This document shows, one piece after another, positions 13,953 to 57,786 of a stretch of 64,000 nt of DNA. A model generated the notes under the pieces. The model was not told the origin of the DNA, searched no databases, and saw only the letters and a list, made by a program, of their open reading frames with translations. How positions within the stretch are numbered: position 1 is the first letter of the stretch; every line of letters begins with the position of its first letter. The translations under genes and the position numbers were made by a program. Location of the stretch: NCBI GenBank assembly GCA_021815405.1, contig JAKAGV010000003.1, positions 62,001-126,000 of the forward strand. The letters run 5' to 3'. Origin of the DNA: Bacteroidota bacterium. Lineage in GTDB: Bacteria; Bacteroidota; Ignavibacteria; Ignavibacteriales; Ignavibacteriaceae.

Positions 13953-14318
13953 ATGATAAAAAGAAACGAAAATTCAAGACAAAGGTCCAAAGCAAGAATT
14001 AGAAAAACAATTTCCGGAACTCCGGAGAAGCCAAGACTTACGATTTACCGGAGCTTGAATAATATCTACGCACAGATAATCGACGATGCATCCGGTAAGA
14101 CACTTGTTTCAGCTTCAACTTTATCTAAAGAAGTTGTTGAGGATGTTAAAAAGGCAAAAGGCAAGGTTGCCAAAGGCAAACTAATTGGTAGCTTGGTTGC
14201 AAAGAAAGCTCTGGAACAAAACATTACAACTGTAGTGTTTGACCGAAACGGTTATAGATATCATGGTCGCGTGCAGGCAGTAGCCGATGGTGCTCGCGAA
14301 GGTGGCTTGAAGTTCTAA
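13953..14318 (+). CDS. rplR: 50S ribosomal protein L18
   Basis: L18 (121 aa) binds 5S rRNA with L5. Typical segments are GTPEKPRLTIYRSLNNIYAQIIDD, VGSLVAKKALE-like IGSLVAKKALEQNI, and the C-terminal FDRNGYRYHGRVQAVADGAREGGL. The normal next gene, rpsE, is displaced by about 260 nt that contain a tRNA gene, so this is the last protein gene before the interruption of the spc order. Confidence 0.96.
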   Translation: MIKRNENSRQRSKARIRKTISGTPEKPRLTIYRSLNNIYAQIIDDASGKTLVSASTLSKEVVEDVKKAKGKVAKGKLIGSLVAKKALEQNITTVVFDRNGYRYHGRVQAVADGAREGGLKF

Positions 14319-14334
14319 AAAAAACAAAATTAAA

Positions 14335-14392
14335 AATTGGAATATGAAAAAATATTTTAAGATTGATTTAATGAATTTTGAATTTTCCAATT
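14335..14392 (+). repeat. AT-rich stretch with inverted repeat between rplR and tRNA-Gln
   Basis: The 99 nt between the rplR stop and the tRNA are very AT-rich and non-coding. AATTGGAA (14335-14342) and TTCCAATT (14385-14392) form an 8-bp inverted repeat with a 42-nt loop. No promoter of quality is visible, so the tRNA is probably part of the long ribosomal transcript. A weak element only. Confidence 0.4.
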
Positions 14393-14417
14393 CTGATTTT
14401 GAATTCAATAAGGTTCT

Positions 14418-14488
14418 TGCCGAGTCGTCTAATGGCAGGACTACGCCCTTTGGAGGCGTCTGTAGAGGTTCGAATCCTCTCTCGGCAG
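14418..14488 (+). tRNA. tRNA-Gln (anticodon TTG)
   Basis: The 71-nt sequence folds into a full cloverleaf: acceptor TGCCGAG/CTCGGCA (7 bp), D-stem GTCT/GGAC with loop AATGGCA, anticodon stem ACGCC/GGCGT with loop CTTTGGA, 4-nt variable region, and T-arm AGAGG-TTCGAAT-CCTCT. The anticodon TTG is at 14450-14452. The U1-A72 pair and G73 discriminator are glutamine identity features, supporting the assignment. CCA is not encoded. It lies on the same strand between rplR and rpsE, inside the spc operon, which is an unusual place. Confidence 0.95.
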
Positions 14489-14496
14489 CTTGATTC

Positions 14497-14532
14497 TTCC
14501 GGACAAGCATAAAGCCGGAGAAAGTTTTTATA
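14497..14532 (+). terminator. Weak terminator-like hairpin after tRNA-Gln
   Basis: TTCCGG (14497-14502) pairs with CCGGAG (14515-14520) across a 12-nt loop; a short run GTTTTTAT follows. The stem is only 6 bp with one G-T pair, so any termination would be partial. It could define the 3' flank of the tRNA or reduce read-through into rpsE. Confidence 0.35.
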
Positions 14533-14577
14533 AAAATAAATGTTCAAAAAATTTAACGAGTGTATTTGGAGACTCAA

Positions 14578-15084
14578 TTGAAAAATGTAAAGTCTGGTGA
14601 AATAGAAGGGCTGAAAGAAAAAGTCGTTCACATAAATCGAGTTGCGAAAGTTGTAAAAGGCGGACGCCGTTTCAGCTTTAATGCAATTGTGGTAGTTGGC
14701 AACGGGCAAGGTATTGTCGGCGTTGGTCTTGGAAAAGCGAACGAAGTTTCAGATGCTATTTCCAAAGGGGTTGACGATGCTAAAAAGAATTTAGTAAGCG
14801 TTTCGGTTATCAAAGGAACTGTTGCGCACGAAATCATAGGAAAATTCGGCGCAGGCAGAGTGCTTTTGAAACCGGCTTCACCGGGAACAGGGCTTATCGC
14901 CGGTGGCGGTGTCCGCGCAGTTCTTGAAGCAGCTGGTGTTCAGGATGTTCTTACCAAATCCTTAGGCTCAAGTAATCCTCACAACCAGGTTAAGGCAACT
15001 CTAAACGGCTTACTGAACATTGTCGATGCAAGAAGAATGGCAGGCAAGAGAAGAATGACAGTTAAAGAACTCTTAAGCGCTTAG
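14578..15084 (+). CDS. rpsE: 30S ribosomal protein S5
   Basis: S5 (168 aa from TTG 14578) has the double-stranded-RNA-binding fold ([41 protein letters not shown]) and the C-terminal domain with [19 protein letters not shown]. It contributes to decoding fidelity. I prefer TTG 14578 because GGAGA lies 5 nt upstream; the upstream in-frame GTG 14560 (174 aa) has no ribosome-binding site. If the preceding tRNA is cut out by RNase P and a 3' nuclease, this gene's mRNA begins at a processed 5' end. Confidence 0.95.
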
Positions 15085-57442: not shown

Positions 57443-57567
57443 AGAAGTTACTCCTATATAAATTGTTATTGGTTTAGGTTGTAACTTCGGGGAAATAAGG
57501 AAAGCAGAAACGTGAAAATGATTTTTGCCAACCTAACCTTGCCCGCGAAGGTCGATTATTTATTATC

Positions 57568-57722
57568 AACGGCAGGTCTCCTGGCTGAAAGCAAGTAAAG
57601 AGTAATTATTTAATTCCTGCTTATCACAGTTGCGCGTCAGTTCCGGAATTTTCCATAAGTGCTGGAAGCACCGGATTCCCTATAATTCCCGTTATTCCGA
57701 TTAAATCGGGATCGGGACACCG
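57568..57722 (-). promoter_or_regulatory. Cobalamin (B12) riboswitch
   Basis: On the - strand the B12 box GCCAGGAGACCTGCC (57571-57585) is conserved, preceded by GGGAATCCGGTGC, AATTCCGGAACTGACGCGCA and AACTGTGATAAGCAGG, in the order of the cobalamin riboswitch class. The start near 57722 (GGTGTCCCGATC) is the conserved 5' strand. It ends about 125 nt before the btuB ATG, leaving room for an expression platform. It would switch off btuB when cobalamin is plentiful. Confidence 0.94.
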
Positions 57723-57786
57723 TAAATATTTTAAAGAACGATTTTAATTTACAAAAATTTCAATCAATTACAATTTGGTAAAATTG

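What the first reader, a model, noticed from the sequence alone, without database searches (positions are those of the whole stretch)
14319..14577. tRNA-Gln inserted in the spc operon between rplR and rpsE
The order rplR-rpsE is nearly universal. Here a complete tRNA-Gln(TTG) with U1-A72 and G73 interrupts it, with AT-rich flanks and no evident promoter. If transcribed with the ribosomal genes, its release by RNase P and 3' processing would cut the spc mRNA in two and create the 5' end of the rpsE message, coupling a tRNA supply to ribosomal protein output.
Basis: partly seen in the sequence, partly recalled or inferred. Interest (0 to 1): 0.65.

Follow-up and report, generated by a model that had tools for sequence, protein, structure and literature searches.

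The report
tRNA-Gln inside a ribosomal protein operon
A glutamine tRNA gene sits between two ribosomal-protein genes that are almost always neighbours, and the same arrangement recurs across a whole bacterial lineage, so it is an old, inherited feature, probably made and cut out together with the ribosomal-protein message; the general kind is known, this place for it seems unreported.

Summary
A complete tRNA-Gln(UUG) lies at 14418-14488, between rplR and rpsE, and is the only Gln(UUG) gene found in this genome. It is not an assembly error. Of 80 rpsE loci from related contigs, 67 carry the same tRNA at the same junction, 12 have rplR and rpsE adjacent, and one contig is cut. In a separate phylum sample a tRNA sits there in 12 of 12 same-order genomes, 3 of 16 same-class and 0 of 32 other-class genomes examined. 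The tRNA starts 3-22 nt after the rplR stop in 58 of 68 loci, leaving no room for a promoter in that gap; terminators after it are at chance level (1 of 68). Co-transcription followed by excision is therefore the best reading, but no transcript was seen. The closest known arrangement, rpmG-tRNA-Trp-secE, exists in the same genome. New here: lineages lacking the insertion keep a Gln(UUG) gene elsewhere, usually upstream of prs; and rpsE begins with UUG/GUG in 68 of 71 loci with the tRNA but AUG in 15 of 16 without it, on only two or three independent changes. 'Coupling tRNA supply to ribosomal-protein output' is plausible and untested.

The parts
13953..14318 (+). rplR (L18), upstream neighbour
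   Evidence: ORF; gene name from reading the product, recalled; orthologues align in 79 of 80 related loci
14319..14417 (+). 99-nt AT-rich leader between the rplR stop and the tRNA; a 34-nt imperfect inverted repeat at 14327-14400 (71%)
   Evidence: only 40% identical to the leader of nearest relative L031, so not conserved
14418..14488 (+). tRNA-Gln(UUG), T1-A72, G73; 14489 is C74; CCA not encoded; sole Gln(UUG) gene found in the genome
14494..14531 (+). Terminator-like hairpin (-8.0 kcal/mol) followed by GTTTTTAT, candidate attenuator in this genome only
   Evidence: 1 of 68 trailers, 0.9 expected from shuffles
14568..14571 (+). Shine-Dalgarno-like GGAG of rpsE, retained on the 3' side of the tRNA
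14578..15084 (+). rpsE (S5), start codon TTG
   Evidence: one search lists the same frame from an upstream GTG at 14560

Best explanation
A tRNA-Gln(UUG) gene became fixed inside the spc operon, between rplR and rpsE, in an ancestor of this Ignavibacteria-like lineage, and became the cell's only gene for that tRNA. It is most likely transcribed as part of the spc message and released by the general tRNA-processing enzymes. RNase P would cut just after the rplR stop codon. 3' trimming and CCA addition would leave a downstream rpsE-rpmD-rplO-secY message that begins in the trailer and keeps its own Shine-Dalgarno sequence. rpsE is thereby uncoupled from rplR translation and starts on its own, mostly from a UUG codon behind a good Shine-Dalgarno. 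Shown: position, conservation, sole copy, spacing, start codons. Inferred: co-transcription, cleavage, independent initiation. Any regulatory gain beyond tying tRNA dosage to ribosomal-protein transcription is unproven.
For: 67 of 80 related loci share it; 12 of 12 same-order genomes. Leader 3-22 nt in 58 of 68 and at most 10 nt in 39 of 68 leaves no room for a promoter in the gap. Terminator-like sites follow 1 of 68 (0.9 expected) but 15 of 41 other tRNAs of this genome, so read-through into rpsE looks like the rule. The Gln(UUG) pattern finds the spc copy once in each of 13 genomes. rpsE keeps its own Shine-Dalgarno 3' of the tRNA, shortest trailer 20 nt. The same genome has rpmG-9 nt-tRNA-Trp-24 nt-secE.
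Against: No transcript data. A promoter inside the 3' end of rplR is not excluded. The window genome itself has a 99-nt leader and a -8.0 kcal/mol terminator-like hairpin after the tRNA, so here rpsE might partly depend on another promoter. No RNase Z model reached its cut-off in this genome (best 86.7 bits against 292.95; 9 of 14 control genomes passed), so the 3' enzyme is unsettled. Two clades inside the lineage lack the insertion, so it is dispensable over evolution.
Confidence: 0.77

Rival explanations
1. The tRNA has its own promoter inside the end of rplR or in the AT-rich leader and its own terminator; its position in the spc operon is a passive accident.
For: The window and L031 have long AT-rich leaders (99 and 86 nt); the window has a terminator-like hairpin after the tRNA.
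Against: Leaders of 3-10 nt in 39 of 68 loci; no + strand promoter-like site in the scan; terminators at chance level across the lineage. A promoter inside rplR cannot be ruled out, and my promoter scan hardly separated even other tRNAs of the genome from shuffles.
Confidence: 0.13
2. In the window genome the stretch acts as an attenuator: the hairpin at 14494-14531 ends part of the transcripts after the tRNA, so tRNA and upstream ribosomal proteins are made in excess over rpsE-secY.
For: -8.0 kcal/mol hairpin plus GTTTTTAT. Six of 68 trailers repeat at least 5 nt of the tRNA's 5' acceptor strand, 1.08 expected, which could pair with the 3' strand.
Against: The hairpin class is not conserved: 1 of 68; the nearest relative L031 gave no terminator-like site. 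The acceptor-strand repeats come mostly from one subclade and are not independent.
Confidence: 0.07
3. Assembly or binning artefact at the junction.
For: Many of the genomes are metagenome-assembled (titles).
Against: The same junction in 67 of 80 loci from many separate assemblies, including CP053447.1, titled a chromosome (L080).
Confidence: 0.01

Closest known systems
rpmG (or tufB)-tRNA-Trp-secE-nusG-rplK operon
   Same: A single tRNA gene a few nucleotides after the stop codon of a translation gene and shortly before the next one. Present in this same genome: rpmG-9 nt-tRNA-Trp-24 nt-secE. Pseudomonas has tufB-tRNA-Trp-secE-nusG-rplK-rplA (PMC8765398, passages).
   Different: Different operon (spc), different tRNA; here it splits the rplR-rpsE pair.
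metY-rimP-nusA operon of E. coli (recalled, not looked up)
   Same: tRNA co-transcribed with genes of transcription and translation and cut out by processing.
   Different: tRNA is first in the operon there, internal here.
tRNA punctuation of organelle transcripts (titles and starts of abstracts only, listing)
   Same: tRNA excision defines the mRNA ends.
   Different: General system in mitochondria; here one tRNA in one bacterial operon, excision not shown.

Membership tests
tRNA-Gln(UUG) | Cloverleaf with anticodon UUG | tested here: met
tRNA-Gln(UUG) | Gln identity features U1-A72 and G73 (features recalled) | tested here: met
   sequence; aminoacylation not tested
tRNA gene embedded in a protein-coding operon | Same strand and short spacers to both neighbours | tested here: met
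   leader median 7.5 nt, trailer median 45 nt in 68 loci; the window itself has 99 and 88 nt
tRNA gene embedded in a protein-coding operon | Conserved across species | tested here: met
   67 of 80 loci; 12 of 12 same-order genomes
tRNA gene embedded in a protein-coding operon | No promoter or terminator of its own | tested here: inconclusive
   terminators at chance level but one in the window; promoter scan weak
tRNA gene embedded in a protein-coding operon | Co-transcript processed by RNase P and 3' nucleases | not testable with these tools
   needs RNA data
prs-linked Gln(UUG) gene of the phylum (possible orthologue) | Located upstream of prs-rplY | tested here: not met
   own prs locus carries no tRNA

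The most novel reading that the evidence does not exclude
The tRNA is an obligatory cleavage device of the spc message. A ribosome finishing rplR, whose stop codon is as little as 3 nt from the tRNA, hides the tRNA from folding and RNase P, so excision happens only between ribosomes. Release of the sole CAA-reading tRNA then frees an rpsE-secY message that must start by itself from UUG, making tRNA-Gln maturation, L18 translation and S5-SecY output one coupled switch kept across the lineage.
Probability: 0.15. Interest if true: 0.72.

Novelty: new member of a known kind. Interest (0 to 1): 0.42.

Why it matters
rplR-rpsE is one of the most stable gene pairs in bacteria (recalled). A lineage that put its only CAA-reading tRNA between them offers a natural test of how far ribosomal-protein genes need translational coupling and one continuous message, and of whether tRNA dosage is tied to ribosome production. 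It is also a gene-order marker for the lineage, with clades that lack it and keep another Gln(UUG) gene elsewhere as natural controls.

Tried and rejected
Terminator conserved after the tRNA: rejected, 1 of 68 against 0.9 expected. Trailer copies of the acceptor strand as a tRNA/terminator switch: 6 of 68 against 1.08 expected, mostly one subclade; left open as weak. Leader as a conserved regulatory element: rejected, 40% identity between window and L031 while the tRNA is 100% and the trailer 73%. Leader as a dispersed repeat: one further partial match in the genome (39 bases, 82%), not followed. Other Rfam families over the junction: only matches far below gathering score. Single-strand fold of 14319-14577: z -1.76, 10 of 200 shuffles as good, not telling. 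All tRNA-bearing rows as one clade: rejected by the AU test, p 0.0045, 24 of 61 rows, quick tree; the grouping was chosen after seeing earlier trees. UUG start caused by the insertion: two independent pairs on supported branches, sign test p 0.5; also f11 (TTG) and f5, f6 (GTG) have such starts without the tRNA. Codon demand as a reason: 55 CAA and 71 CAG in the window's ribosomal genes, secY and rpoA, no clear pattern.

Literature searches gave no listed paper that, by title and start of abstract, describes a tRNA between rplR and rpsE. I saw listings and the starts of abstracts, plus passages of PMC3534657, PMC13092985 and PMC8765398. The library holds open-licence papers only.

Full report
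Observation. The tRNA-Gln(UUG) is real: 14418-14488 by Rfam (59 bits), 14418-14489 by ARAGORN. It lies between rplR (ends 14318) and rpsE (TTG at 14578, GGAG at 14568-14571). All other gaps from rplB to secY in the window are 2-68 nt; this one is 259 nt. Of 42 tRNA matches in the genome, the only Gln(TTG) is this one; the other Gln has CTG.

Conservation. An rpsE search of public genome contigs returned 80 loci, the best of 547 confirmed, so close relatives are favoured. ARAGORN finds tRNA-Gln(ttg) at the same junction in 67 of 80; in 12 the two genes are adjacent; in one (L050) the contig starts inside rpsE. Some loci are near-duplicates (for example L040/L041, L065/L066), so the count is not of independent cases. 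A second, evenly drawn sample of the phylum gave 118 genomes, 113 with an rpsE match, the window's own included. I fetched the junction from 60 of them: all 12 same-order, all 16 same-class, and 32 of 84 others. A tRNA is there in 12 of 12, 3 of 16 and 0 of 32. One of the three same-class cases (G014) has a tRNA-Gln body with anticodon GTG.

History. On a 61-row tree rooted with other classes (FastTree), all tRNA-bearing rows fall inside one node (support 0.996) that also holds two clades without it, one with a row titled Kryptoniota (L110) and one of group f3. The tRNA state changes three times on this tree and on a 24-row IQ-TREE tree; holding all bearers together is rejected there (AU p 0.0045). 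Three changes fit one gain with two losses, or three gains; I prefer one gain because the site and the tRNA type are the same, but counts alone do not decide, and if the prs-linked copy is counted too the two histories come out even. Genomes of f3, f7 and several outgroups carry another type of Gln(UUG) gene, beginning TGGGGYGT. In six of seven flanks read, a gene I recognise as prs (from its sequence, recalled) lies downstream; two of these six (f19, f23) carry the spc-like tRNA type, beginning TGCCCGGTCGTCTAATGG. The window genome's own prs locus has no tRNA. In 13 of 13 bearing genomes (own plus 12 of the order) the Gln(UUG) pattern finds the spc copy once; the pattern would miss genes with other T-stem bases, and a few other matches were not classified. 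So the lineage seems to keep its sole CAA-reading tRNA in the spc operon, and to have lost the one elsewhere.

Anatomy and mechanism. Over 68 bearing loci (window included) the leader is 3 nt at the shortest, median 7.5, at most 10 in 39 and at most 22 in 58; the trailer to the rpsE start is 20 nt at the shortest, median 45. No promoter fits in most of these leaders. Terminator-like hairpins follow the tRNA in 1 of 68 (the window), 0.9 expected from shuffles, against 15 of 41 other tRNAs of the same genome. The simplest reading is a co-transcribed tRNA cut out by RNase P and 3' processing; that is inferred, since no RNA data are held. With leaders under about 12 nt, a ribosome at the rplR stop codon should cover the start of the tRNA (footprint size recalled); this is the base of the novel case.

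Start codons. By a rule of my own that weighs Shine-Dalgarno pairing and favours ATG, rpsE begins with TTG (60), GTG (8) or ATG (3) in 71 bearing loci; with ATG in 15 and TTG in 1 (L274, probably a miscall) of 16 non-bearing loci of groups f3 and f7 and their kin; and with ATG 8, GTG 3, TTG 2 in 13 further genomes. Median Shine-Dalgarno energy is -6.4 kcal/mol in 68 bearers and -3.75 in 12 non-bearers. rplF (mostly GTG) and rpsM, rpsK (mostly TTG or GTG) use weak starts in both groups. The pattern rests on two to three independent contrasts, so it is a lead, not a proof.

The window's own oddities. The 99-nt leader has a near match in length in L031 (86 nt) and L087 (78 nt), the latter GC-rich; all others are 48 nt or less. 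Window and L031 are 40% identical there, against 100% for the tRNA. The hairpin at 14494-14531 may end some transcripts in this genome.

Known kinds. A tRNA between translation genes is well known: tRNA-Trp before secE lies in this same genome, 9 nt after rpmG, and in Pseudomonas after tufB (PMC8765398, passages). The place inside spc and its spread across the lineage did not turn up in my literature searches. I call it a new member of a known kind.

Noticed in passing
L142 (G014:C46:24847-24917): The spc tRNA-Gln body carries anticodon GTG (one base from TTG), and no Gln(TTG) was found among the genome's other tRNA matches; either a sequence error or a genome without a plain CAA reader.
   Followed up: partly
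L122:3719-4622 (G000:C12, upstream of the window): tRNA-Tyr, -Gly, -Thr, then rpmG, tRNA-Trp and secE: rpmG is flanked by tRNAs on both sides.
   Followed up: yes
L247 and L248: A small ORF resembling GIY-YIG nucleases (recalled motif) lies between tRNA-Gln and prs in groups f7 and f3.
   Followed up: no
L229, L230 against L247-L249, L254: At the prs locus the Gln(UUG) gene is of two different types in different classes, suggesting replacement of the tRNA in place.
   Followed up: partly
window 57554-57739 (-): Cobalamin riboswitch, 73.5 bits.
   Followed up: no
window 13392, 18281, 18692: Weak start codons recur in this ribosomal cluster: rplF GTG, rpsM and rpsK TTG, across the lineage.
   Followed up: partly
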